Source: an uncultured Verrucomicrobia subdivision 3 bacterium (GTDB lineage: Bacteria > Verrucomicrobiota > Verrucomicrobiia > Limisphaerales > UBA11358). Taken from it: 64,000 bases of DNA. The DNA lies in contig CAIPKV010000015.1 in the NCBI GenBank assembly GCA_903865745.1, forward strand, positions 1 to 64,000, given 5' to 3'. Both the position numbers and the translations under genes were made by a program. Under the pieces are notes generated by a model. It had not been told where the DNA came from and searched no databases. It worked only from the letters and a program-made list of their open reading frames with translations. Positions 48,109 to 61,345 of the stretch are shown piece after piece (within the stretch, counting starts at the first letter, position 1; every line of letters begins with the position of its first letter).

Positions 48109-48705
48109 TCAGTTCGCGTAGTGGACGCCGCAGCCGTAGGGCTTGGTCTGCGTGACGGAGACGGGCTTACCCGCCAACAATTCTGCCACGGCGGCGCGGA
48201 CGTAATTCTTCGCGGTACGCGGATCACCAAACGGTTGCGGCCGATTATCTATCGCGCCGTCATAGGCCAGCGTGCCGTCGGTCGCGATGACAAAACAATG
48301 CGGCGTGGTCTTCATGCCGTAAAGATGACCGATGTCGCCGGTGTAATCGTCCAGCCACGCGGTGGCGGCAATTTTCAAGTCCGCCCATTCCTGCTGCGCC
48401 TGCGCCGGCGTGCGGTAGCTGAAATTGTTGGTGTTCACGGAATCCACCATGAGCCAAATGACGCCTTTGGCCGCCAGCTCCTTCTGCAATTCCGGCATCG
48501 CACCACTGGCGTAATGGTTGTGACAAAACGGGCAGTCGGAGTTATAGGATTCGATGACGACCAGCTTACCTTTGTAATCGGAGAGCTTGATAGTCTTGCC
48601 ATTGATGTCGGTACCGGTGAAATCCGGCGCGGGTTTACCGATCTCAACGGCAAACAGCGAGGTCCCGAGAGTGATGGCGAAAAGCAGGGTGAATAGTTGT
48701 TTCAT
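48109..48705 (-). CDS. secreted thioredoxin-fold redoxin (peroxiredoxin-like)
   Basis: The 198-residue protein has a signal peptide and an AhpC/Redoxin fold (GKPAPDFTGTDINGKTIKLSDYKGKLVVIE). A CPFC motif takes the active-site position, and a C-terminal PYGCGVHY adds another cysteine. It is probably a periplasmic thiol-disulphide or peroxide-linked redox protein. It follows the DsbD-like gene on the same strand and could accept electrons from it. Confidence 0.85.
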   Translation of the reverse strand: MKQLFTLLFAITLGTSLFAVEIGKPAPDFTGTDINGKTIKLSDYKGKLVVIESYNSDCPFCHNHYASGAMPELQKELAAKGVIWLMVDSVNTNNFSYRTPAQAQQEWADLKIAATAWLDDYTGDIGHLYGMKTTPHCFVIATDGTLAYDGAIDNRPQPFGDPRTAKNYVRAAVAELLAGKPVSVTQTKPYGCGVHYAN

Positions 48706-48765: not shown

Positions 48766-50916
48766 TTACTTGGCCGCGCGGTCAAGCGCAGCAAGAACGA
48801 GGCTAGGGGTGAGGACTTCGGGTAGCACTATCGCCGCCGCATCAATATTCTTCGGATAAACCAAAACCAGCGGCACGCCCGCGCGATGGTAGCGGTTCAG
48901 CTCCGCCGTGATGGCATCGGGGAAGTGCGTGTAGTCGCCGAGCAGCGCAATAACGTTGAGCGATTTCAGTTTTTCGCGAACCGTAGCGACTTCAATACTC
49001 GTCTTCTTGTTGACCTGACAGGTCAGACACCAATCCGCCGTGAAATCAACCAGCACCGGCTGGCCCGAGGCCCGCGCCACCGCAAGCGCACCGGGACTCC
49101 AGCGCTGCCAGTCAATACCCTCGGCAGATTCTTTGAGCGAACCGGTGGTGACCTTTGGCGGCAAGGCATTACGCCAGTCGAGTTCCTTTTCCAGCGCAAA
49201 CTCGTAACCGCCCAGTAACAATATCACCACAAACGCCAAGGCAACGCCCTTGCTCGAACGGCCGCGCTGGACAAATTCACCGAAGATCCAGGCGGCGAAG
49301 GCGACGACCACGAGAAAGATGCCGAGCCAGAGAACATTTTTGCCGTAGCTGCTGGCGGCAATGTTGAACAGCCAGATGACAGTGGCGAGCATCGGAAAAC
49401 CCATGGCAATCTTGAACTTCTCCATCCACGCGCCCGGCTTGGGCAGGAATTTGAGCCAGGCCGGGTTCCAACTCAATAGAATATAGGGTGACGCGAGCCC
49501 CAGTCCGACAGTGAGAAAGATCAGGACGATGACGGCCGCACTTTGGGCAAAGGCGAACCCGAGTGCCGCGCCCAGAAACGGCGCGGTGCAGGGCGTCGCG
49601 AGCACGGTGGCCAGCACGCCATTGAAAAATGCGCCAGCCGCACCGTGCTTGGAGGCCAATTCGCCGGCGGCATTCAGCGCGCCACCGCCGAGGATGACTT
49701 CAAACACGCCAAACAAGTTCAGCGCGACCAGCGTGACGAGCGTGGTGAGACACACGATGAACACGGGGCTGCCAAACTGCATGCCCCAGCCGGCGTGATT
49801 GCCCGCCGCCTTGACGCCGATGACCAGGGTAGCGAGCACGAGGAACGAAAGCAGCACGCCGACCGCATAAATCAGGCCGAGGTTGCGGACGCGGCGCGGT
49901 TCGCTCTTGGCCTCGCTGACGAAACCAAGGATTTTCAGCGCGATGACCGGCAGCACACAGGGCATGATGTTGAGAATCAATCCGCCGATGAAGGCGAAGA
50001 GCAGCATATGCCAGAGCGATTGGGCGGGTGAGGCGGGCGAATTGTCCGGATTGGGAATAGTTTTGCTAGAAGGCGCGGCATTGCCTACGGGCAGCTTGAT
50101 TTGAATGGCGCGCTCGCCATTGCCACCATCGTTCAAGACGAGGACGCCGGAAATTTCCTGCGGCCAGTCGCCCGAATATTTCTTCACCACCTTGCGAATG
50201 CGAAGGTCGGCGGCATTCGCAGAAATGATTTCGGTGGCTGATTGAACCTCAAAGGCATCGCTGGCGTCGGGGAAAAAATCAACCGAGTCGAATTTGATAT
50301 TCTTGGCGGCATCCACCGGCTGCTGGTTGGCGATAATCAACGACCGGGTCTCGTTAGTCGCCGGTGTTTCCCACCAAGCACTCAGCGCGTAGGGATTATC
50401 CAGCAGCGGCGTTTTACTTTGCCACTCGGCCAGCGTTGCCGCGTCAGCGGAGGTTTTATTATCAGCCCCAACATTGAGCACAGCCTGAACTCCGCCGCTG
50501 GCGGGAATGCACGACTCATTACATTCGAGCCAAGACACCTTGGCGGCGAAATTCAGCGGCCCGGCGGGCAGATTGCTTGCCAGCGTGAGGGGCACGAGCA
50601 AGACCACTTCGTCCTGATAGCCGTAAGTTGTGACGTCGGCCGGCGGAAGTTTTTTGGGGAGCGGCCATTGGATATCACCAGCGGTGACACCAGCGGGCAG
50701 CTGCCATTTGATATCCGGGGCTTGGCCAGCTTCGCCAGGATTTTTCCAGTAAGTGTGCCAACCCGACTCCATCTTAAGATCCACGCCCGCCCAGATGGTA
50801 TCGCCGGGCTTGGCGGTGTCGGCGGACAAAAGCAGTTGCACCTGCGTGTGGGCAGCCCGGGCGCAAGCCAAGCTGAGCATCAGGGCCGCAAAGCAGTATA
50901 TTTTTCGCACAATCAT
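48766..50916 (-). CDS. dsbD: DsbD-like thiol-disulphide interchange protein
   Basis: The 716-residue protein carries electrons from cytoplasmic thioredoxin across the membrane. Order: signal peptide; N-terminal DsbD alpha-like domain (about 20-280, GWHTYWKNPGEAG); an eight-helix membrane domain with cysteines in NIMPCVLPV and TPCTAPFLG; and a C-terminal thioredoxin domain with WCLTCQ. It would keep the TlpA, redoxin and DUF4266 cysteines encoded nearby reduced (inference). Confidence 0.9.
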   Translation of the reverse strand: MIVRKIYCFAALMLSLACARAAHTQVQLLLSADTAKPGDTIWAGVDLKMESGWHTYWKNPGEAGQAPDIKWQLPAGVTAGDIQWPLPKKLPPADVTTYGYQDEVVLLVPLTLASNLPAGPLNFAAKVSWLECNESCIPASGGVQAVLNVGADNKTSADAATLAEWQSKTPLLDNPYALSAWWETPATNETRSLIIANQQPVDAAKNIKFDSVDFFPDASDAFEVQSATEIISANAADLRIRKVVKKYSGDWPQEISGVLVLNDGGNGERAIQIKLPVGNAAPSSKTIPNPDNSPASPAQSLWHMLLFAFIGGLILNIMPCVLPVIALKILGFVSEAKSEPRRVRNLGLIYAVGVLLSFLVLATLVIGVKAAGNHAGWGMQFGSPVFIVCLTTLVTLVALNLFGVFEVILGGGALNAAGELASKHGAAGAFFNGVLATVLATPCTAPFLGAALGFAFAQSAAVIVLIFLTVGLGLASPYILLSWNPAWLKFLPKPGAWMEKFKIAMGFPMLATVIWLFNIAASSYGKNVLWLGIFLVVVAFAAWIFGEFVQRGRSSKGVALAFVVILLLGGYEFALEKELDWRNALPPKVTTGSLKESAEGIDWQRWSPGALAVARASGQPVLVDFTADWCLTCQVNKKTSIEVATVREKLKSLNVIALLGDYTHFPDAITAELNRYHRAGVPLVLVYPKNIDAAAIVLPEVLTPSLVLAALDRAAK

Positions 50917-50961
50917 GAAATACTTTTTTCCCTATCGAACCTAAAGGCTTTTGGCCATTGC

Positions 50962-53900
50962 CTACGGGGCAGACTTCAGACGGTAGAACCGGCTGTTAGC
51001 GCGGGCGGTATCGGTCACTTGCCACTGGCCGGCAACGGCGGCATTGGTAGAAATGTCCGTCCACGTGGCCAAGTCGGCGCTGGCTTGCACGACGTAATTA
51101 GAACCCGTCGTGCCGCTACAGTTCAGGGTGATGCTGCCATCCGAATTCGGGATGATTTTGGCAATGACCAACGGCAGCGGCACAACTGCGGAAGAGATAT
51201 TATTAATTGTCCTTAAATTGTCGGTCCCGCCACCGTCCCCCCCACCGCTGCCGCCAGTCCGCACAAACAGCACTGCATTGGAACTAGTAGCGCTGCCGGC
51301 CACATTGGTGACTACCAGTACATAGACGCCGGAATCATTCGTCGTCACGGTGGCCACCGTCAGCGCACTGGTGAGCGAGCCGGAAATATTTCCACCGTCC
51401 GCTAGAGCCGAACCATTTTTCAACCACTGGTAACTAAAAGGCGCCGTGCCGCTCACGGCCGCACTGAGGGTTACCGTGTAGCCGGTTCTGACCGTCTGGT
51501 TCGTCGCCTGCACTGTGAATACCGGTGGGACCCAGACCGAGAGCGTAGCCACGGTACTGGTAACGCTACCGGCAAAATTAGTGATAACCACAAAGTAGGA
51601 ACCCGCATTATTCGTAGTGACCGCGGCAATGTTGAACGTGGAATTAGTTGCACCAGATACCACCTTGATTCCTTTGTACCATTGGTAATTGAACGGCGCA
51701 GTGCCAGTATTAACTACGCTGAAGCTGGCGACATTGCCGACGATCACTCCCTCGCTGACTGGTGGCACGGTGATGACCGGCGGTGCCACTACAGTCAGAG
51801 CACTGCTACTCGATACACTGCCAACCGGATTGCTTACGACGACCGAATAAACACCGGAGTCGTTGGTCGTCAGCGACGAAATCTTCAACACATTCGTAAC
51901 GGCCCCAGAAATATTTCCGCCATTCACCAAGGCCACGCCATTCTTGAACCACTGGTAGCTTAACGGGGCCCCGCCCGTCGCAGTAATGCTCAACGTGATA
52001 TTCGTACCCGCCTTGACCAGATTGGCGGGCGATGGAGTCGTCACCCGTGCCACTGGCATAATCTGCAGCCCGGATTTGATACTAGGCGGGGTTAAAACCG
52101 ACAGTGCAGCGGCAGCACTCGTAGTGCTGCCAAACGTGTTCTTGACGATGACCGAGTATGAGGCACCAGACTTAGTTGTGACCTTGGATAACGTGAGCGA
52201 GGAGCTATTCGCGCCGGAAACGCCGCCACCATTAGCAAGCTTGGCTCCATTTTTAAGCCATTGATATGAAAATGGTGCGGTACCACTGGCGGCAACCGTG
52301 AAAACGACGTTGCCGCCTACCGCCACATACTGGCTGGCCGGCTGGGTGGTAATGATCGGCGAAGCATTTACGGTGACACTCGCGCTCGTGCTGGTGGCAC
52401 TGCCAAAGGCATTACTGACCACGACGAAATAATTACCCACTCCGTTCGTCGTCAACGCGAGAATGGTCAGGATGTTTGAAGTTGAACCAGAAATATTTGC
52501 GCCGTCCACGAGTGCACCGCCAGCATTGAACCAATGGTAGCTCAACGGCCCGGTGCCGCTGGCGATGACTGACAGAACTACGTTACTACCCAGCGCGCCA
52601 AACTGGGTGACCGGCTGCGTGACGATGGTCGGCGGGAATTCCACGGTCAAAGCAGCGGCGGCACTTGTCACATTGCCAGCAGCATTGCTAATGGCGACGG
52701 AATAACTCGCCGCGTCCGCCGCCGAAACATTGGCAAGCGTAAGGGTGGCCGAATTTGCACCTGAAATAGCAGTACCGTTCTTCAACCATTGATAGACCAA
52801 CGGGGCAGTCCCGCTGGCAGCCACTTTGAACGTAGCGGAGTTGCTGACAACCGCACTCACAGCCGTTGGCGGGGTGACGATGGCTGGCGGCACCAAGACC
52901 GTCAGCGTCGCGGAGGAACTCGCGATACTACCGACGAGGTTGGTAACGATGACTGCATACCCGGCCGCATCATTAGTGCTGACGCCCGCAAGCGCGAGCA
53001 CATTAGAATTCGCACCTACGATAACCACGCCGTTTTTAAGCCATTGGAAATTCAACGGCGCCGTACCACTGGCAGTAACGGTGAACATAGCATTACTACC
53101 TTGCACCACGCTGACGCTTACTGGTTGAGTGGTAATAGCGGGCGCAAGCAAAACGGTTAGTGCCGCGGTGCTGCTGGTAACAGCACTGGCAGCGTTGGCA
53201 ACAATGACGGAATAATTAGCGGCGTCCGTGGCGGAAACATTGTTAAGCGTTAGAGTTGCGTTTACTGCGCCGGAAATATTAGCACCATTTTTTTGCCATT
53301 GATAAGTCAACGTCCCGCTGCCGGCGGCGGTCACGGTGAAGGTAACATTACTCCCTGCCACCGCCGTGACACTGACCGGCTGATTAACAATAGTCGGTGG
53401 CACCAAGACCGTCAGCGTCGCGGAGGAACTCGCGATACTGCCGACGGTGTTGGTGACGACGACAGAATAGCTGGCCGCGTCATTGGTGCTGACGGAGATT
53501 AAGTTGAGAACATTAGAATTGGCACCCGCTATTACTGAGCCGTTTTTCAGCCACTGAAAACTCAACGGTGCCGTACCGCTGGCAGTGACGGTGAAGGTAG
53601 CATTGCCACCTTGTACCACGCTGACATTCGCCGGCTGGGTGGCGATGGCAGGCGGGGCTAGTACCGTCAATGTCGCACTCCCGCTGGTGGCACTCCCGAC
53701 AGCGTTGGTAACGGCGACGGAATAACTCGCAGCGTCCGCCGCCGAAACATTGTTAAGGGTCAACGTGGCAGAAGTGGCACCGGATATGACCGCACCATTT
53801 TTTAACCATTGATAGGCCAGCGGTGCCGTGCCACTGGCGCTAACAGTGAAGGTAATATTGCTGCCTGCGAGAATCGCCGCGCCGACCGGTGACGCCGTAA

Positions 53901-55263
53901 TCGCCGGTGGAACCGCAACGGTCAACGTGGCACTCGGGCTGGTGACTGTGCCCAGTGCGTTGGAGACGATCACAGAATAACTCGCAGCATCGTTGGCTGA
54001 CACAGTCGAAAGATTCAGGGTGGCGGCAGCGGAGCCGGAAATATTACCACCATCAGCCAGGGCCGTGCCGTTTTTCAGCCACTGGTAATAGAGCGGCGTG
54101 GAGCCCGAAGCGGTGACGCTAAAACTGGCTTTGCTACCGGCAACCACCGCAACATTCGCCGGCGGCGTGGTAATGGTTGGCGACGAAACTACGGTTAACG
54201 CGGCGGTGGAACTGGTAACACTGCCGGCCAGATTGGAAACAATCACCGAAAAATTTCCCACGTCCGCCGTAGTGAGCGTGGCGACAGTCAGATTACTGGA
54301 ATTGACGCCAGAATATTTCGTCCCATTGGCAACGGCCACGCCGTTCTTGAGCCAAAAGTAATTCAGCGGCGCACTGCCACCAGCGCTTACGGAGAAGGTC
54401 GCGCTGCCGCCGACAGCCTGCGTCTGAGATAAGGGCTGGCCGGTGATGGTAGGAGGTAGAATGACAGTGAGGGTCACGGCGGCACTGGTTGCGGTACCGA
54501 CGCTGTTGCTAACTAGTACTGAATAATTAGCAGCATCGGTCGCCGCAACACTGGCGAGCGTGAGGGTGGTAGTAGTTGAACCAGAGACATTGCCACCATC
54601 CGCCAATGGCACATTGTTCTTGAACCAATAATAAGCTAGTGGTGCGGTGCCGCTGGCGGTAACAGTGAACGTGGCGGTTTTTCCGGCGGCAACACTAGCC
54701 GCAATCGGCGGCGCAGTTATAGCTGGAGCCGTCGGCAGCGATGACCCACTTATGGTAATGGTAATACTCTGGGCTAACTGTGCGTTGCCAGGGCTAACGC
54801 AGGTGATGGAAGCAGGATAAGTACCGGCCGTTGTGGGGGTGCCAAATATGACACCACCAATGGTCGAAGAATTATTTACCCACGATGGTTTGAAAGTTAA
54901 GCCCGGCGGCATGCCCACGGTAGTAGCTTGGCCGTTAGCCAACGCAGAAGAACTGGTAGTGCCAGCGGTAACAATGAAATAATCGCTCGAAGCCGCCGTG
55001 TTGCCGCCACCGATCGAAACCAACACATTGTTTGAGAACACGTTTCCGACAGTGCCGCTGAAAGTACTCGGGGTCGTGAAAACCGAGGTCGCACCTGATA
55101 CCGCATCCACTGAACCCACCGCCACCCCCGCCCCGATTCCCCAGCGCAAAATGATTGCAAAGGTGGATGAAGCAGCTGGATTTGCTACGAATGATCGCAC
55201 CAACGGCAGCACCTGTAAAAGGGCAGCCAAAACAACCGCAGGTCGATTATATCGGAACAACAT
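50962..55263 (-). CDS. secreted protein with about 13 Ig-like domains and an N-terminal flavinylation-type motif
   Basis: The 1433-residue protein has an N-terminal hydrophobic segment and a second one (FAIILRWGIGAGVAVGS) ending in DAVSGAT at residues 53-59, the sequence of FMN sites modified by ApbE. A putative Ig-type domain follows, then 13 repeats of about 85-90 residues (each with P-x-I-x-x-x-P, G-x-x-x-x-F-x-V-x-A-x-G-x-x-P-L-x-Y-x-W-x-K-N-G and Y-S-V-x-V-x-N). The C-terminus (NCSGTTGSNYVVQASADLATW... FYRLKSAP) is typical of Verrucomicrobiota surface proteins. It is a long fibrous envelope protein; the flavin is inferred. Confidence 0.88.
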   Translation of the reverse strand: MLFRYNRPAVVLAALLQVLPLVRSFVANPAASSTFAIILRWGIGAGVAVGSVDAVSGATSVFTTPSTFSGTVGNVFSNNVLVSIGGGNTAASSDYFIVTAGTTSSSALANGQATTVGMPPGLTFKPSWVNNSSTIGGVIFGTPTTAGTYPASITCVSPGNAQLAQSITITISGSSLPTAPAITAPPIAASVAAGKTATFTVTASGTAPLAYYWFKNNVPLADGGNVSGSTTTTLTLASVAATDAANYSVLVSNSVGTATSAAVTLTVILPPTITGQPLSQTQAVGGSATFSVSAGGSAPLNYFWLKNGVAVANGTKYSGVNSSNLTVATLTTADVGNFSVIVSNLAGSVTSSTAALTVVSSPTITTPPANVAVVAGSKASFSVTASGSTPLYYQWLKNGTALADGGNISGSAAATLNLSTVSANDAASYSVIVSNALGTVTSPSATLTVAVPPAITASPVGAAILAGSNITFTVSASGTAPLAYQWLKNGAVISGATSATLTLNNVSAADAASYSVAVTNAVGSATSGSATLTVLAPPAIATQPANVSVVQGGNATFTVTASGTAPLSFQWLKNGSVIAGANSNVLNLISVSTNDAASYSVVVTNTVGSIASSSATLTVLVPPTIVNQPVSVTAVAGSNVTFTVTAAGSGTLTYQWQKNGANISGAVNATLTLNNVSATDAANYSVIVANAASAVTSSTAALTVLLAPAITTQPVSVSVVQGSNAMFTVTASGTAPLNFQWLKNGVVIVGANSNVLALAGVSTNDAAGYAVIVTNLVGSIASSSATLTVLVPPAIVTPPTAVSAVVSNSATFKVAASGTAPLVYQWLKNGTAISGANSATLTLANVSAADAASYSVAISNAAGNVTSAAAALTVEFPPTIVTQPVTQFGALGSNVVLSVIASGTGPLSYHWFNAGGALVDGANISGSTSNILTILALTTNGVGNYFVVVSNAFGSATSTSASVTVNASPIITTQPASQYVAVGGNVVFTVAASGTAPFSYQWLKNGAKLANGGGVSGANSSSLTLSKVTTKSGASYSVIVKNTFGSTTSAAAALSVLTPPSIKSGLQIMPVARVTTPSPANLVKAGTNITLSITATGGAPLSYQWFKNGVALVNGGNISGAVTNVLKISSLTTNDSGVYSVVVSNPVGSVSSSSALTVVAPPVITVPPVSEGVIVGNVASFSVVNTGTAPFNYQWYKGIKVVSGATNSTFNIAAVTTNNAGSYFVVITNFAGSVTSTVATLSVWVPPVFTVQATNQTVRTGYTVTLSAAVSGTAPFSYQWLKNGSALADGGNISGSLTSALTVATVTTNDSGVYVLVVTNVAGSATSSNAVLFVRTGGSGGGDGGGTDNLRTINNISSAVVPLPLVIAKIIPNSDGSITLNCSGTTGSNYVVQASADLATWTDISTNAAVAGQWQVTDTARANSRFYRLKSAP

Positions 55264-55275
55264 ATTTTTAGGATA

Positions 55276-56541
55276 TTAGGGTATTATCTGAATGCGATAA
55301 AATAGGTTTGACGCACCCAGTGAATCCGTGATGGTTACTGCATTAGTTGTGGCGGGCGGAGCGACATTTGTTAACACGCCCCAAACGCCGCCAGCCAAGA
55401 CATTATTCGTCAGCACTGAATTGGTTAAGCCTACCACCGGCACAAATGTAAACTGAAACAATCCAGCATTTTTGGTGGGAGTCGTCACAATCGGTGGAAC
55501 GGGATTTGTAATAACTAAATTTGCAACTGAACTAGTTACGCTACCTGCGCTATTGGTTATGACGACTGCGTAAGCCCCAGCCTGACTCGCACGGATTCCC
55601 GTCAACGTCAGCGAGGCATTGGTCGAGGATATTAACGTGGTGTTTGTGTTGAATATCCATTGATAGGTCAGCGTAGGCACACCCCCGGCAACGACATTAA
55701 AGGCACCATTGGCACCGGCAACGTTCGTCACGCTGACCGGTTGGTTGGTGATTACAGGGGCCTGCCAAACCGTCAGAGAGGCAAAAGAACTGGTGACGGA
55801 CCCAGACGTGTTAGTAATGATTACCGAATACATACCTGCATTAGTCAACTGAACATTGGCCAAGGTGACAGCTGAGTTGGTCTGGTTTAGCAACGCTGTG
55901 TTGGTGTTGAAATACCATTGATAACCGAAGGGCGAGGCGCCTCCGTTCGTTACACTAAAAGTTGCGGAAGAACCAACCAGATTGGTTAGATTGATTGGCT
56001 GGGTGGAAATGACGGGTGCTGCTCCTCCCCCCGAAAGGACGGTTAGCGTAAAATAGCCACTAACAACAGCATAGCCAGGAAAAGACATATCCACTCGGAA
56101 AAGATTCGTCCCGGCTCTTGTTGGCGTGCCACTAATGACATCATAAACCCCACTGGAAGTGCCACTATCGACAAATTTGAAGGTAAGTCCAGGCGGCATA
56201 GCAAAGTTGGTGCTCTGTCCGTTTGCTATGAGTGATACATTAACTGTGTTACTTACTATCGTCGCAACCGCACCAGAATCAGTTCCTGATGAATGCAAGG
56301 TTAAGTTAGTAGTGAACGGAGTGCCCACGGTTGCCGTCATATTGGTTGACGAAGTAAAATAATTGGTAGCACCCGAAACGGCATCCACGGTGTCCAAAGC
56401 CAGCGCTGAACCTATTCCCCAGCGCAAAATGATTGCAAAGCTTGAGCCAGCAGAGGGAACAGTGATGATGTTGCGCAACAGCGGGAACAATTGTAAAGCT
56501 GCTGCCAGCAATAAAGGTAACGTTTGGTTAAGTCGTTTCAT
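55276..56541 (-). CDS. secreted Ig-domain paralogue with the same N-terminal motif
   Basis: This 421-residue protein shares its N-terminus with the larger one downstream: a hydrophobic start, FAIILRWGIGSALALDT and DAVSGAT at the identical residues 53-59. It then has a domain with AMPPGLTFKF, two Ig-like repeats (about 180-345) and a C-terminal module ending NLFYRIQIIP. It precedes the 13-Ig gene by 12 bases and follows the DUF4266 gene on the same strand. A short and a long form of one design are encoded side by side. Confidence 0.88.
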   Translation of the reverse strand: MKRLNQTLPLLLAAALQLFPLLRNIITVPSAGSSFAIILRWGIGSALALDTVDAVSGATNYFTSSTNMTATVGTPFTTNLTLHSSGTDSGAVATIVSNTVNVSLIANGQSTNFAMPPGLTFKFVDSGTSSGVYDVISGTPTRAGTNLFRVDMSFPGYAVVSGYFTLTVLSGGGAAPVISTQPINLTNLVGSSATFSVTNGGASPFGYQWYFNTNTALLNQTNSAVTLANVQLTNAGMYSVIITNTSGSVTSSFASLTVWQAPVITNQPVSVTNVAGANGAFNVVAGGVPTLTYQWIFNTNTTLISSTNASLTLTGIRASQAGAYAVVITNSAGSVTSSVANLVITNPVPPIVTTPTKNAGLFQFTFVPVVGLTNSVLTNNVLAGGVWGVLTNVAPPATTNAVTITDSLGASNLFYRIQIIP

Positions 56542-56594
56542 AACTGATTTTAAAAATTTGGAATCAGATTATATTTAAGATTTTTTCTATTTCA

Positions 56595-56813
56595 TTAATT
56601 ACAGCCGCAGCCGCCACCGCCCACGCCACTGCCGCCACTGGCTTCTTCTCGCGAGAACCAAATGTGCTCCGCCTGTGCCTTGCCGAGCGGATCGCGATCA
56701 GGTTGCATAGTATAGTCCGCTAGGTGCTCACGCTGCCACGGCTTGACGTTCGCACACCCACTGCCAACCATAAGCACAGCCGATGCCAATAGAAAAAGGG
56801 CTTTGATTTTCAT
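56595..56813 (-). CDS. DUF4266 lipoprotein with a glycine/cysteine tail
   Basis: From ATG 56813 the product is 72 residues: a lipobox (VGSGC), the DUF4266 core KPWQREHLADYTMQPDRDP, and a tail GGSGVGGGGCGCN. DUF4266 proteins commonly accompany TlpA, ApbE and DUF3570 genes, as here, where all four are adjacent. The role is unknown; the CGC tail could hold a metal or disulphide (inference). Confidence 0.88.
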   Translation of the reverse strand: MKIKALFLLASAVLMVGSGCANVKPWQREHLADYTMQPDRDPLGKAQAEHIWFSREEASGGSGVGGGGCGCN

Positions 56814-56817
56814 GGTA

Positions 56818-57312
56818 TTATTTAAGTAGTGAGTCGATTTCGCTGACATATTCCTTGCGGGTGTCCTCACCGTGGAAACCGTTGTGCAGAAAACGGACTG
56901 TGCCGGTACTGTCGAGAATGAACGAAGTCGGCATAGTCGCCGGCTCGGCAACGGCTACTAATTTTTGATTGGCATCCCGTACGACGGTAAAAGAGACATT
57001 ATGTTTTTCAAGAAACTTATCCATGTTTGTCTTTTTCTCATCCACGCTCACGGCCAGGATTACTAGCTTATCGCCATATTTTTTCTGAAGTTCATCTAAA
57101 ACTGGAAATGACTTGGCACACGGCGCACACCATGACGCCCAGAAATCCACGACGACAACTTTGCCTTTTAGCGCATCAGGCAATTTGCCTTCCAAGTTGA
57201 AGCTGGTTAGGTCGGGTAACGAATCTCCAACTTTCAGCGCGGCTTGGGCGGAAAATAAATTTCCAGTGACCAGTGCCGCCAGCGTTAGTTTTTTAAGCAG
57301 GGATATATTCAT
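56818..57312 (-). CDS. TlpA-type secreted thioredoxin
   Basis: From ATG 57312 the product is 164 residues with a signal peptide and a thioredoxin fold. The active site is WCAPC within VVDFWASWCAPCAKSFP, and the cis-proline is in ATMPTSFIL. TlpA proteins reduce disulphides outside the membrane, for instance in cytochrome and metal-site assembly. It overlaps the ApbE gene by 20 bases and ends 4 bases before the DUF4266 gene. Confidence 0.92.
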   Translation of the reverse strand: MNISLLKKLTLAALVTGNLFSAQAALKVGDSLPDLTSFNLEGKLPDALKGKVVVVDFWASWCAPCAKSFPVLDELQKKYGDKLVILAVSVDEKKTNMDKFLEKHNVSFTVVRDANQKLVAVAEPATMPTSFILDSTGTVRFLHNGFHGEDTRKEYVSEIDSLLK

Positions 57313-58291
57313 GGAATTTTCGGGAATAGAGTTTGGTGGTTTCGGTGGTGACCGCCCCGGCGGCGCCGGGATGGAGTTCGACAAGTTGTAGGCCTTCTTT
57401 CGCTCCAAGGATACAGACGCTGGTGGAAAGCAGTCCCGCAATGGTGCAACTCGGTGCGATGATGGACACGGCTCGGCAATCGTTAAAAGCGGGATAGCCG
57501 GTGCGCGGATCGAGGATGTGGCCATAACGGCGACCGTTGAAAACAAAATTACGCAGATAGTCGCCAGAGCTAGCAACGCCGTGATCGGTTACGGCGACAC
57601 CCGCCCAGCATTTACCCGGACTATTCGCGTCATCGAGTCCAATCCACCAATATTTTTTGTCCGGAGCATGGCCGCGTACGCGAACGTCTTGGCCAAAATC
57701 CACAAGCACGTTTGGAATGCCGCGCTGGATGGCCATGTTCATCACACAATCAACGGCATACTCCTTACCAATACCGCCTAGGTCGAGCGCCATGCCGCTT
57801 TGTGGCAGAAAAATACCACCGGGGCGGCGCTGGATTTTGTTCCAGCCCACAAGTGCGAGCGCGGCTTGAATAGAGGCATCATCCGGCACCACGGGTGGAA
57901 ACTGTTTCCAGTTCCACAATTTGATGAGCGGCAGTGCGCTGGGATCAAACGAGCCGCGGGTAAAGAAAAATAGTTCCTGACAGAGATTAAACAGCCGGTC
58001 GGTTTCTGGATCAACTTCCACCCAATGTTCCCCGGCGGCGGCATTGATGCGACCAATCAGGCTGTCCGGGATGAACCGCGAATAGCGCGCCTCGAACTGC
58101 GCCGTCCAGCGGACGACATCGCGCTGAAATTCAGTAGCAATGCTGGCGGGAACACCATGAACATTCACACGGCAGAGCGTGCTCATGGCATAGAACTCCA
58201 ACTTGTGAAGACCATGCTCGACCGAAGTCTGCGCGGATTGGGATACGCGGGCGAGAACTTGCTGCGCTGAGTTGGGGCTGGTGGTCACCAT
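57293..58291 (-). CDS. apbE: FAD:protein FMN transferase
   Basis: The 332-residue protein matches ApbE, which moves FMN from FAD to threonine or serine side chains of extracytoplasmic proteins. Motifs: EARYSRFIPDSLIGRIN, ALDLGGIGKEYAVD, VDFGQDVRVRG and GVASSGDYLR near the Mg/FAD site. No clear signal peptide is seen at the N-terminus (MVTTSPNSAQQVL), so location is uncertain. It sits directly between the DUF3570 gene (7-base overlap) and the TlpA gene. Confidence 0.9.
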   Translation of the reverse strand: MVTTSPNSAQQVLARVSQSAQTSVEHGLHKLEFYAMSTLCRVNVHGVPASIATEFQRDVVRWTAQFEARYSRFIPDSLIGRINAAAGEHWVEVDPETDRLFNLCQELFFFTRGSFDPSALPLIKLWNWKQFPPVVPDDASIQAALALVGWNKIQRRPGGIFLPQSGMALDLGGIGKEYAVDCVMNMAIQRGIPNVLVDFGQDVRVRGHAPDKKYWWIGLDDANSPGKCWAGVAVTDHGVASSGDYLRNFVFNGRRYGHILDPRTGYPAFNDCRAVSIIAPSCTIAGLLSTSVCILGAKEGLQLVELHPGAAGAVTTETTKLYSRKFHEYIPA

Positions 58292-59445
58292 AAGAAAGAT
58301 ACTCCAGCCGTATAAACATTGGCCTCCGGATACATGGCAGAACTGGTTTTTCCATCTAAACCATGCATTTCGTACCGATGATAGCCGACTACTATGTGGA
58401 TGTGATCGTTAACAATGCCGGTCAATTGGACTCCGGTATCGGTGGAGTAAAATTCCGACAGGCGATAGTCGGACGAATGGAATCCGGGCGGACCGTTCGG
58501 ATTAGTAGTAAATGGACCGGAGAACGTGGTGGCATAAAAATTCGCAGCTGATTGTTCATAAAAGCGGAAGAACGGTTCCGCAATAAAATGTTTACCCACC
58601 CATTGACGCCACGTTACCCCTACTGTGTTCGCAATAACGCCGTAAGAGTCATTGTAAAAGCGATAGGAACCTTCAATGCTGCCGTTGACCTTCTCGAAAT
58701 ACTGTGTCAGTGAAGTGTAAAACACCTCCTTATTACGATGGCTTGGCCGGCGTTCTGGCACTCCAATGCTGAAAGGAAAACCAGTTGGCACATAACCCGC
58801 AAGCCGATAAGGATCGCTCAAATAGCCGGAATCATTGCCAAAAGTAAAGTCTGCCGTAAATATCGTTTTAGGTGAGAGCAGTTGCGAAACACCAATTAAC
58901 CCTTCGGTGGAATATTTGTCCGACCAAACATATTTGTCAGTGGTGTGGTCGGTATTACGAACCGAGTCAATATTTTGAGAGACACCGTACTCAAGAGTTG
59001 TGTTTTTCTCATTGAACTGGATCGCGTCATTCAGTGACAGCCCGTAGGACTGATAATCGCTTTCTTTACTGTAGGCAAAACCTGGCGTCAGCGTATTATC
59101 CTTAGTAAGACTGGCATCCAGTTGCAGACTGACTGACCGGCGGTTGTCCTGCAGGTGCGTCAACGCGATTTTCCCATTGGGATAAACCGTACCCTTTGGG
59201 GTTGCACCAGAAATGCCGTCATAAACAAGTTCGCCCTTGGCGACAGTTGCATCCGTTAATTTTTGCTCGAAGTAAACCGAATCCGTATAAATGGTCATCC
59301 GGTTGTTGTCTTCGCTGTAATACTCGTAGCGGTAGTCAACCTGATTTTCCGCGTGGAGAAATCGCGGGAGACTCAAGGTGATTCCGAGTGGCCCGGCACA
59401 ACGCGCCCAGCTGGCTGAACGAAAAGGTTTACGCTTATTTGTCAT
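58285..59445 (-). CDS. DUF3570 outer-membrane beta-barrel with a DGISGAT motif
   Basis: The 386-residue protein has a basic start and a hydrophobic signal stretch, then amphipathic strands rich in aromatic residues and a terminal ...VSFLW, as in outer-membrane barrels. DUF3570 is a family of such proteins linked to ApbE and DUF4266. Residues 76-82 read DGISGAT, followed by P-K-G, which fits the flavinylation pattern. It is the first gene of the operon; no ribosome-binding site is obvious. Confidence 0.85.
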   Translation of the reverse strand: MTNKRKPFRSASWARCAGPLGITLSLPRFLHAENQVDYRYEYYSEDNNRMTIYTDSVYFEQKLTDATVAKGELVYDGISGATPKGTVYPNGKIALTHLQDNRRSVSLQLDASLTKDNTLTPGFAYSKESDYQSYGLSLNDAIQFNEKNTTLEYGVSQNIDSVRNTDHTTDKYVWSDKYSTEGLIGVSQLLSPKTIFTADFTFGNDSGYLSDPYRLAGYVPTGFPFSIGVPERRPSHRNKEVFYTSLTQYFEKVNGSIEGSYRFYNDSYGVIANTVGVTWRQWVGKHFIAEPFFRFYEQSAANFYATTFSGPFTTNPNGPPGFHSSDYRLSEFYSTDTGVQLTGIVNDHIHIVVGYHRYEMHGLDGKTSSAMYPEANVYTAGVSFLW

Positions 59446-59618: not shown

Positions 59619-60671
59619 TCAGATCTGAAACTGCCCCGGCTGTTCTACTAGTGGCACCAACAGGCGGGTCACATAATAATTACCGCCGTGGCGGCGCTGC
59701 AAACGCAATTCCGGCTCCAGCCGCAGTAACGCCCCCACCACCCGCAGACCCAAACCAAGAGTGGGTTCAGTAGTACTGGCACGCCGGGCGCGATTACCCA
59801 CAAATAAACCCACAAATTTACCGTAGCGCTTGACCCTGACCGTGAAATCACCATCTCCATGTTTGAGAGCATTGGTGAGCAGGTTGTGGGTAATTTGCCG
59901 CACATGGTGCGGGTCCGCCGAAACCCAGCAATCCGGCATGGCTTTCAAAATGAACCGACGATCCTGCTCGGCGGCAATCAGCTGAAAATCCTCCACCACC
60001 TCAGCAATCGTCTTGGAAAAATTGAAGACCGAGCGCATGGTCATCACCCGGCCACGCTCGGCGCGCGCAATCAGCAGCGACTGTTCCACCACGTGCGTCA
60101 GGCGGTGCAACTCACCTTCGACTTCGTCGGCCAGTTCCGGCGCGATGCGTTCACCACCTTGTTCGACTTTAAGCCGTAAGATGGCTAGAGGCGTGCGCAG
60201 CTCATGCGCTACTTTAGCGGCATAATCATTCATTTCTTCAAAGGAATCATCCAGCCGGACGAGCAGTTCATTTAAGTGACGCACCAAATCACGGAATTCA
60301 TAATCCAGTTCCGGCAGCGAGATGGGTTCGCCCAGGTTGCTGGGATTTTTTGCCTGTAATTGCCGGTTCACATTTGCAATCGGCCGCAACGATTGGCGCG
60401 CCAGCCAGTAACCGCCTGCTACGGCCAGCAACACGACCGGAATCAGCCACAACAAAGCGGCATCCAGCAAGTTATTAGCAATTTGGTGAACTTCCGCTTC
60501 GGTCAAGCTGTTATGCAGCGACCAATCCGGCAATTCGGGATAAACTTTATTGCAGGCCGTCTGGAGCAATTGTTTTTCCAGGGTGAGATGGAGTAGAAAA
60601 ATAAAGGCCGCCGCCACCACCATGAAGCCGCAGCCGTACCAAACCGTGAGGCGCAACCGCAATGACTTCAC
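59619..60671 (-). CDS. sensor histidine kinase (HAMP, HisKA, HATPase)
   Basis: The 350-residue kinase has two transmembrane segments (about 10-28 and 73-92) around a short sensor loop of about 45 residues, a HAMP-like linker, a HisKA helix with phospho-acceptor His156 (VAHELRTPLA), and a HATPase domain with N box HNLLTNALKHGDGD and G2 LGLGLRVV. The G1 aspartate position reads VGNRAR. It overlaps the response regulator gene by 4 bases (ATGA). The small sensor loop suggests sensing at the membrane or of a small ligand. Confidence 0.9.
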   Translation of the reverse strand: MKSLRLRLTVWYGCGFMVVAAAFIFLLHLTLEKQLLQTACNKVYPELPDWSLHNSLTEAEVHQIANNLLDAALLWLIPVVLLAVAGGYWLARQSLRPIANVNRQLQAKNPSNLGEPISLPELDYEFRDLVRHLNELLVRLDDSFEEMNDYAAKVAHELRTPLAILRLKVEQGGERIAPELADEVEGELHRLTHVVEQSLLIARAERGRVMTMRSVFNFSKTIAEVVEDFQLIAAEQDRRFILKAMPDCWVSADPHHVRQITHNLLTNALKHGDGDFTVRVKRYGKFVGLFVGNRARRASTTEPTLGLGLRVVGALLRLEPELRLQRRHGGNYYVTRLLVPLVEQPGQFQI

Positions 60672-61345
60672 GGTTCCCCCTCCTTCAAGACAAAACCCAC
60701 GCCGCGCATCGTATGAATCAGCGGCCGCCAGCCCGGCCGGTCGATTTTCCGCCGCAACAACTTGATATAAACATTCACCACGTTGGTGTCGGAATCAAAG
60801 TGCTGGTCCCAGACGTGCTCTACAATCGCTGTCTTGCTCACCGGCCGGGGCGAAGAGTTGATGAGAAATTCCAGCAGCGCAAATTCCCGGCGAGTCAGCT
60901 CGATTTCTTCCCCGCCGCGCCGTGCCGAGTGGGTTACCAAATCCAATTCCAAATCATCCACGCGAATAAGATTCGACGCCTGCGGCCGCTGCCGGCGCAG
61001 CACCGCACGCAGCCGGGCCAGCAGCTCGGAGATTGAGAATGGCTTCGTCAGATAATCATCCGCGCCCGCGTCCAGTCCGCGCACCTTATCCTCCACGTCA
61101 TCGCGCGCGGTCAGGAAAATCACCGGGGACAGGACGCCCTTACGACGCAGATGACGCACCACTGTGATGCCATCTTTGTGCGGCATATTCACATCCAGCA
61201 ACAGCGCGTCATAGCTATTCGACTCCGCAAGCCAGATGGCTTCGTCGCCATCGCTGGCCACGTCCACGGCATAGCCTTCGGACACGAGGCCGGTGCGGAT
61301 GTGCTCCGCTACTTTAGGTTCATCTTCTGCTAACAGGATGCGCAT
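60668..61345 (-). CDS. OmpR/PhoB-type response regulator
   Basis: The 225-residue protein has a receiver domain (LLAEDEPKV, phospho-acceptor Asp in DALLLDVNMP, T in FLTARDD, K in LTKPFS) and a C-terminal winged-helix DNA-binding domain (ELTRREFALLEFLI ... VVNVYIKLLRRKID). It is cotranscribed before the kinase. Similar CusR-like pairs respond to metals, but no target is proved. Confidence 0.92.
   Translation of the reverse strand: MRILLAEDEPKVAEHIRTGLVSEGYAVDVASDGDEAIWLAESNSYDALLLDVNMPHKDGITVVRHLRRKGVLSPVIFLTARDDVEDKVRGLDAGADDYLTKPFSISELLARLRAVLRRQRPQASNLIRVDDLELDLVTHSARRGGEEIELTRREFALLEFLINSSPRPVSKTAIVEHVWDQHFDSDTNVVNVYIKLLRRKIDRPGWRPLIHTMRGVGFVLKEGEP

What the first reader, a model, noticed from the sequence alone, without database searches (positions are those of the whole stretch)
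48766..59445. Candidate flavinylated envelope redox system: ApbE next to three proteins with S-G-A-T motifs
Within one minus-strand run, ApbE (57293-58291) neighbours a DUF3570 barrel with DGISGAT (residues 76-82) and two Ig-domain proteins with DAVSGAT, at residues 53-59 in both. ApbE is known to attach FMN to the threonine of D-x-x-S-G-A-T motifs in NqrC, RnfG and FMN_bind proteins. None of these three shows an FMN_bind fold that I can recognise. TlpA, DsbD, a redoxin and a Cys-tailed DUF4266 lipoprotein are encoded alongside, so electrons could pass from membrane thiols to surface flavins. Ig-array proteins as flavin carriers would be new to me.
Basis: partly seen in the sequence, partly recalled or inferred. 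Interest (0 to 1): 0.9.

Follow-up and report, generated by a model that had tools for sequence, protein, structure and literature searches.

The report
Likely new flavin-carrying surface proteins
A Verrucomicrobia bacterium carries a known gene set that bolts a flavin (a vitamin B2 cofactor) onto an outer-membrane protein, and in this phylum the set includes an undescribed family of long immunoglobulin-like proteins whose front end carries the same attachment site, so these are probably a new kind of flavin-carrying protein.

Summary
ApbE, a DUF3570 barrel (DGISGAT, residues 76-82) and two Ig proteins (DAVSGAT, residues 53-59 in both) lie in one minus-strand cluster with TlpA, DUF4266, DsbD and a redoxin. 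Most of this is already published: ApbE/DUF3570/thioredoxin-like/DUF4266/DsbD is the flavinylation 'DsbD system' of Meheust et al. 2021 (PMC8238504), and a DUF3570 has been shown to be flavinylated. The Ig proteins are not in that paper. Their N-terminus (two helices, then the motif) defines an undescribed family. The acceptor residue is Thr or Ser in 60/60 aligned members, and 52/52 members found with a motif-free query carry the motif. All 34 Limisphaerales genomes with the module also have DUF3570 (only 3 of 83 without it do), and in most loci the gene follows DUF4266 or DsbD. The genome's other Ig proteins lack the module. I conclude, by inference, that they are a new class of ApbE substrate: the flavin sits on an N-terminal helical module and the Ig array is a stalk. 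Covalent FMN, electron route and function are unproven. Caveats: the ApbE lacks a signal peptide, and its catalytic Asp is Gly, with a reciprocal Gly-to-Glu change elsewhere in the active site.

The parts
58285..59445 (-). DUF3570 protein, predicted outer-membrane beta-barrel, known class of ApbE substrate
   Evidence: Pfam PF12094 E 3.5e-59; AF2 pLDDT 90.6, all-beta barrel, top Foldseek hits are outer-membrane barrels
59200..59220 (-). DGISGAT flavinylation motif of DUF3570 (residues 76-82)
   Evidence: acceptor T/S in 60/60, Gly 60/60 aligned DUF3570s; one motif here versus two in C. luteolum
57293..58291 (-). ApbE, FAD:protein FMN transferase; no signal peptide; Glu177/Gly286 variant active site
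   Evidence: PF02424 E 4.3e-69; N-terminus not hydrophobic; Ser242, His258, Thr290 kept, Asp replaced by Gly286, Gly replaced by Glu177
56818..57312 (-). TlpA/ResA-like thioredoxin with signal peptide (start inferred at MNISLLKK)
   Evidence: Pfam Thioredoxin_8/Redoxin, N-terminus conserved in relatives
56595..56813 (-). DUF4266 small lipoprotein with C-terminal CxC (start inferred at MKIKALFL)
   Evidence: PF14086 E 1.5e-20
55276..56541 (-). Ig protein 2 (421 aa): N-terminal flavinylation module plus two Ig_3 domains and C-terminal beta domain
   Evidence: AF2 model
56365..56385 (-). DAVSGAT of Ig protein 2 (residues 53-59), directly after helix 34-52
50962..55263 (-). Ig protein 1 (1433 aa): N-terminal flavinylation module plus 13 Ig_3 domains
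55087..55107 (-). DAVSGAT of Ig protein 1 (residues 53-59)
55021..55263 (-). N-terminal module used as search profile (81 aa): helix 1 with conserved Q17, P20, R23; helix 2; motif
   Evidence: alignments A1-A4
48766..50916 (-). DsbD-type transmembrane electron carrier
   Evidence: DsbD_N, DsbD_TM, Thioredoxin_7
48109..48705 (-). AhpC/TSA-type redoxin, downstream end of the run
   Evidence: conserved next to DsbD in L036, L038, L040, L041

Best explanation
This is the known ApbE/DUF3570/thioredoxin-like/DUF4266/DsbD flavinylation system, extended in Verrucomicrobiota by one or more Ig-array proteins that are themselves ApbE substrates. Shown by comparison: the Ig proteins share an N-terminal module of about 66 residues (two hydrophobic helices, then [D/H]-A-V-S-G-A-[T/S]) that keeps the acceptor hydroxyl and is encoded next to ApbE and DUF3570. 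Inferred: the cognate ApbE transfers FMN from FAD to Thr59 of each Ig protein, as it does to Thr82 of the DUF3570 barrel. Because this ApbE has no export signal, the modification probably happens before or during export. Helix 1 then acts as a signal anchor, and the Ig array is a stalk that places or fixes the flavin head relative to the DUF3570 barrel. Further inferred: electrons run DsbD to TlpA to DUF4266 (CxC) to the flavins and on to an unknown extracellular or periplasmic acceptor.
For: Motif: acceptor column T30/S30 of 60, Ala 57/60, Ser 56/60, read from an alignment column; 52 of 52 relatives found with a query that stops before the motif still carry it; 18 further members from other families all end in GAT. 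The T/S exchange with fixed small neighbours is the ApbE consensus D-x-x-[ST]-G-A-[ST] (PMC12052999). Linkage: gene directly after DUF4266 or DsbD in most loci. Order level, 117 genomes: module 34, DUF3570 37, overlap 34, Fisher 2e-26; phylum level, 289 genomes: 13 of 13, Fisher 1e-14. In G054 the cluster lacks ApbE, and the ApbE instead lies directly before a second module gene (L058/L059). In G103, whose cluster also lacks ApbE, the same ApbE subtype is encoded elsewhere. Negative control: none of the 13 other Ig_3 proteins of this genome has the module or a D-type motif (four have N-termini lost at contig ends). Motif position 4 tends to change together in DUF3570 and Ig protein of one cluster (43/55 agree, shuffle mean 33, P 0.0002), including rare V/V pairs. 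AF2 puts the motif in a flexible loop at the end of helix 34-52, outside any folded domain; ApbE accepts 7-residue tags at chain ends (PMC12052999).
Against: No biochemical evidence here. In about 30% of members the Asp is His (D39/H17 of 60), and in others Gly is A/Q/R/S or Ser is A/V, outside the strict consensus; the review reports that Asp to Ala matters little but that Gly to Ala halves the reaction. The ApbE lacks the catalytic/metal-ligand Asp reported as conserved (Vc Asp285). Export of a flavinylated chain by Sec is unproven, and helix 2 could in principle stop transfer (though its mean hydropathy is below the usual TM threshold in 59 of 73). Co-occurrence tests are not corrected for shared ancestry, nor is the position-4 test. 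At least one genome (G017, L133) has the full DUF3570 cluster without an Ig protein, so the Ig protein is not obligatory.
Confidence: 0.8

Rival explanations
1. The N-terminal module is an export, anchoring or docking signal that pairs the Ig protein with the DUF3570 barrel; the SGA[ST] sequence is a helix cap or a binding site and is never modified.
For: Helix 1 has invariant P20 and nearly invariant L16, Q17, R23, more than a plain signal peptide needs; the module is tied to DUF3570 more tightly than to ApbE (some clusters, L068 and L069, lack ApbE locally).
Against: A cap or docking site would not need the ApbE consensus or a free T/S exchange with Ala fixed before it; the motif co-varies with the known acceptor motif of DUF3570; ApbE plus module gene occur as a pair away from DUF3570 in L058; genomes whose cluster lacks ApbE carry one elsewhere.
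Confidence: 0.13
2. Chance: SGAT-like strings are common in Ser/Thr/Gly/Ala-rich Ig proteins and mean nothing.
For: [ST]GA[ST] is expected 1.3 times in a protein of this composition, and Ig protein 1 has three more copies in its repeats.
Against: Fixed position right after helix 2, conserved hydroxyl in every relative, absence from other Ig proteins of the genome, strict gene linkage.
Confidence: 0.02
3. The locus is non-functional for flavin transfer: this ApbE has lost its catalytic Asp and does something else, so neither DUF3570 nor the Ig proteins are flavinylated here.
For: Asp replaced by Gly286 at the position of T. pallidum D284 (Vc Asp285) in 59 of 59 DUF3570-type ApbEs with sequence there.
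Against: The same 59 all gain Glu at the position of T. pallidum G166 in the conserved DLG-x-I-x-K loop, and the three canonical ApbEs keep Gly/Asp, which looks like a moved carboxylate; Ser and His of the triad are kept; acceptor residues of both substrates are fully conserved; a cognate ApbE of this cluster type was active on C. luteolum DUF3570 (PMC8238504), though its sequence could not be checked here.
Confidence: 0.05

Closest known systems
Flavinylation 'DsbD system' with DUF3570 (Meheust et al. 2021, eLife, PMC8238504)
   Same: Same gene content: ApbE, DUF3570 with [ST]GA[ST], thioredoxin-like protein, DUF4266 with CxC, DsbD.
   Different: The window adds two Ig-array proteins with their own motif; DUF3570 has one motif, not two; ApbE lacks a signal peptide and the conserved Asp. 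The paper's text mentions neither immunoglobulin proteins nor Verrucomicrobi*.
FMN_bind proteins (NqrC, RnfG, NosR, PceC; Pfam PF04205)
   Same: Motif VDAVSGAT is of the same form and lies downstream of an N-terminal membrane segment.
   Different: No FMN_bind domain by Pfam or in the AF2 model; the motif is in a loop between a helix and Ig-type domains.
NqrB / RnfD (covalent FMN on membrane subunits)
   Same: Flavinylated Thr on a membrane-associated protein without FMN_bind domain (general knowledge; PMC12052999 for the FMN).
   Different: Those are multi-helix membrane proteins of a pump; no sequence match to a solved structure was found for the module.
DUF2271 and multi-flavinylated proteins (PMC8238504)
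   Same: Non-classical or repeated ApbE substrates found by gene linkage to orphan apbE.
   Different: Different fold and architecture; here one acceptor per protein at the N-terminus.

Membership tests
ApbE/DUF3570 'DsbD' flavinylation system | ApbE + DUF3570 + thioredoxin-like + DUF4266 (+ DsbD) in one cluster | tested here: met
   Pfam hits above cut-off
ApbE/DUF3570 'DsbD' flavinylation system | DUF3570 carries conserved [ST]GA[ST] | tested here: met
   DGISGAT 76-82; hydroxyl 60/60; the second motif of C. luteolum is absent in the window protein
ApbE/DUF3570 'DsbD' flavinylation system | DUF3570 is actually flavinylated | not testable with these tools
   shown for C. luteolum in PMC8238504 only
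ApbE (FAD:protein FMN transferase) | PF02424 fold and family | tested here: met
   E 4.3e-69; 13 solved ApbE sequences matched
ApbE (FAD:protein FMN transferase) | Catalytic Ser-His-Asp (Vc Ser241, His257, Asp285) | tested here: not met
   Ser242 and His258 kept, Asp replaced by Gly286; Glu177 gained. Family membership rests on the fold; activity is an open point
ApbE (FAD:protein FMN transferase) | Extracytosolic (signal peptide or lipobox), typical but not universal | tested here: not met
   no hydrophobic N-terminus in the window protein or most cluster relatives; cytosolic ApbEs are known (PMC12052999)
FMN_bind (PF04205) | FMN_bind domain | tested here: not met
   no Pfam hit in the Ig proteins or genome; AF2 model shows helices plus Ig-type domains
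ApbE substrate (Ig N-terminal module, proposed) | Conserved D-x-x-[ST]-G-A-[ST] with invariant acceptor hydroxyl | tested here: met
   hydroxyl 60/60; but D 39/60 with H 17/60, and G 44/60
ApbE substrate (Ig N-terminal module, proposed) | Genomic linkage to apbE / known substrates | tested here: met
ApbE substrate (Ig N-terminal module, proposed) | Covalent FMN on the motif Thr/Ser | not testable with these tools
   needs co-expression and mass spectrometry

The most novel reading that the evidence does not exclude
A Verrucomicrobiota-wide class of cell-surface Ig-array proteins carries covalent FMN on an N-terminal helical module. It is installed in the cytoplasm, before export, by a distinct ApbE subfamily whose metal-binding carboxylate has moved from the conserved Asp to a Glu in the DLGGIGKE loop. 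Flavin-tipped stalks and a flavinylated outer-membrane barrel would then form an outer-surface redox relay fed by DsbD.
Probability: 0.35. Interest if true: 0.8.

Novelty: new variant of a known kind. Interest (0 to 1): 0.62.

Why it matters
The survey that discovered DUF2271 and DUF3570 as ApbE substrates stated that less prevalent substrates remain unidentified (PMC8238504). This gives one concrete candidate family, found across several families of Verrucomicrobiota, that has no FMN_bind domain and can be tested with one co-expression gel. If flavins sit on long Ig stalks next to a flavinylated outer-membrane barrel, these bacteria may move electrons to or across the surface without multi-haem cytochromes. 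The cytosolic, Asp-less ApbE subtype raises the question of where, and with what metal site, the modification is made.

Tried and rejected
A profile of all module sequences was too diverse for the pattern scan; a narrower one found only Verrucomicrobia subdivision 3 / Limisphaerales contigs, and viral contigs gave none. The plasmid collection gave no DUF3570 or module relative, so I could not check whether the ApbE variant extends beyond this phylum or includes C. luteolum. Chance occurrence of SGAT was considered and rejected. Genome-level co-occurrence with apbE alone was tested and dropped as uninformative (104/117). I compared positive charge after the signal core in DUF3570 and Ig proteins with TlpA and DUF4266, looking for a shared unusual signal: 54/58 and 65/74 versus 33/59 and 38/48, but core placement confounds it, so no claim is made. 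The motif tally imposes T/S by its search pattern, so it is not used as evidence for conservation. Fold search was run only for DUF3570; the module's two helices are modelled with low confidence (pLDDT about 50-60), so no fold comparison was tried. NCBIfam gave no informative match for the Ig proteins or DUF3570.
Full report
WHAT IS THERE. The minus-strand run 61345-48109 reads, in order of transcription: response regulator (60668-61345), histidine kinase (59619-60671), DUF3570 (58285-59445), ApbE (57293-58291), TlpA-like thioredoxin (56818-57312), DUF4266 lipoprotein (56595-56813), Ig protein 2 (55276-56541, 421 aa), Ig protein 1 (50962-55263, 1433 aa, 13 Ig_3 matches), DsbD (48766-50916) and a redoxin (48109-48705).

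WHAT IS ALREADY KNOWN. Meheust et al. 2021 (PMC8238504) showed that DUF3570 of Chlorobium luteolum is flavinylated by its cognate ApbE at [ST]GA[ST] motifs. They described clusters of ApbE, DUF3570, thioredoxin-like protein and DUF4266 with a C-terminal CxC, with or without DsbD, as a hybrid thiol/flavin system. That covers everything in the finding except the Ig proteins. A full-text search found no paper that joins ApbE flavinylation with immunoglobulin-like proteins; the only one that also mentions Verrucomicrobia concerns another phylum.

THE IG PROTEINS: MOTIF CONSERVATION. The 73-residue N-terminus of Ig protein 1 found relatives in 35 of 117 genomes of the order, one of them a poor partial hit. 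In an alignment of 60 members the seven motif columns read D39/H17, A55, V50, S56, G44 (A7, Q5, R2, S2), A57, T30/S30. The acceptor column is thus always a hydroxyl residue and is evenly divided between Thr and Ser. To exclude circularity I searched with residues 1-52 only: all 52 hits continue into the motif. More distant families of the class carry [DHNQ]-[STA]-x-[SAV]-G-A-T. The published minimal motif is D-x-x-[ST]-G-A-[ST], with Thr or Ser accepted, Asp to Ala of little effect and Gly to Ala giving about half (PMC12052999). So most of the variation here is of a tolerated kind; the few Q/R at the Gly position are doubtful.

THE IG PROTEINS: LINKAGE. In the first 49 loci the module gene follows DUF4266 or DsbD in most loci; the same holds in other families of the class. 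Whole-genome counts in the order: module 34 (three weak partial hits left out), DUF3570 37, both 34. The three exceptions are a contig that ends inside ApbE (G007, L134), a DUF3570 fragment (G068, L135) and one true module-less cluster (G017, L133). In 289 genomes of the phylum: module 13, DUF3570 30, both 13. Fisher p is 2e-26 and 1e-14, not corrected for ancestry. Mere presence of an ApbE is uninformative, since 104 of 117 genomes have one. Two telling rearrangements: G054 has a DUF3570 cluster without apbE (L059) and an apbE directly followed by a second module gene (L058); G103 has the cluster without apbE (L047) and an apbE of the same subtype on another contig (L149). Inside this genome, 13 other Ig_3 proteins have neither the module nor a D-type motif, although four have lost their N-termini at contig ends.

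CO-VARIATION. Position 4 of the motif agrees between DUF3570 and Ig protein of the same cluster in 43 of 55 pairs against 33 expected on shuffling. This includes A/A pairs in the family f65 clusters and V/V (DUF3570 DAIVGAT with Ig NSVVGAT) in L120; the matching pair in L123 was assigned to the wrong neighbour by the script, and L033 was misread, both of which lower the count. Two unrelated proteins drifting together at a motif suggests a common reader, which would be their ApbE. The test does not correct for shared ancestry.

STRUCTURE AND PLACE. AF2 of Ig protein 2 (pLDDT 84) gives helix 4-17, helix 34-52, then the motif in a low-confidence loop, then beta domains. There is no FMN_bind fold, and the genome has no FMN_bind protein at all. 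The architecture is therefore a small acceptor module in front of an Ig stalk, rather than 'Ig domains as flavin carriers'. Helix 1 keeps Q17, P20 and R23. Helix 2 is only weakly hydrophobic (19-residue mean above the usual threshold in 14 of 73), so it need not stop translocation. DUF3570 is predicted as an outer-membrane beta-barrel at high confidence (pLDDT 90.6; all top Foldseek hits are outer-membrane barrels or porins), with its motif in the strand region 67-87.

APBE PECULIARITIES. The ApbEs of these clusters have no signal peptide or lipobox in nearly all loci examined, while TlpA and DUF4266 beside them do. Two ApbEs beside divergent DUF3570s (L108, L109) do have hydrophobic N-termini. 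Second, 59 of 59 cluster-type ApbEs replace the Asp that the review lists as conserved (Vc Asp285; T. pallidum D284 by the alignment) with Gly, and all 59 have Glu where T. pallidum has G166. The three canonical ApbEs in the set have Gly and Asp. The Ser, His and Thr of the site stay. The simplest reading is a moved carboxylate in the metal site. This is an inference from sequence, since no structure of this subtype was available.

MECHANISM AND ITS LIMITS. Shown: motif, conservation, linkage, architecture. Inferred with good support: Thr59 of both Ig proteins is an ApbE acceptor (about 0.8). Inferred with weak support: modification in the cytoplasm, export as an anchored stalk, and an electron path DsbD, TlpA, DUF4266, flavins. 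Not known: the final acceptor. A two-component system sits at the head of this cluster and of several relatives (L033-L035, L037, L041-L043), so expression is probably signal-controlled.

VERDICT. What remains is a strongly supported, apparently undescribed ApbE substrate family in Verrucomicrobiota: a new variant of a known kind.

Noticed in passing
57293-58291 (Glu177 at 57761-57763, Gly286 at 57434-57436); DUF3570-cluster ApbEs form a subtype in which the conserved catalytic/metal Asp is Gly and a conserved Gly in the DLGGIGKE loop is Glu, 59 of 59, reciprocal to canonical ApbEs.
   Followed up: partly
59619-61345, and L033-L035, L037, L041-L043, L068, L073: An OmpR-type response regulator and a short-sensor histidine kinase head the cluster here and in several relatives, so the redox system is probably regulated by a dedicated two-component system.
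   Followed up: no
L058 and L059 (same genome, G054): apbE has moved out of the DUF3570 cluster and now directly precedes a second Ig-module gene.
   Followed up: partly
L148 (G020:C165): A lone Glu/Gly-type ApbE in a genome without detected DUF3570 or Ig module; its substrate is unknown.
   Followed up: no
L052, L054, L067, L078, L129-L131: Extra copies of Ig-module genes lie away from any DUF3570 cluster in genomes that have DUF3570 elsewhere, so the module has spread to unlinked paralogues.
   Followed up: partly
G000:C53:32466-33185, L132:5428-6261: The window's genome has a second, canonical (Gly/Asp) ApbE without signal peptide and without an obvious substrate next to it.
   Followed up: no
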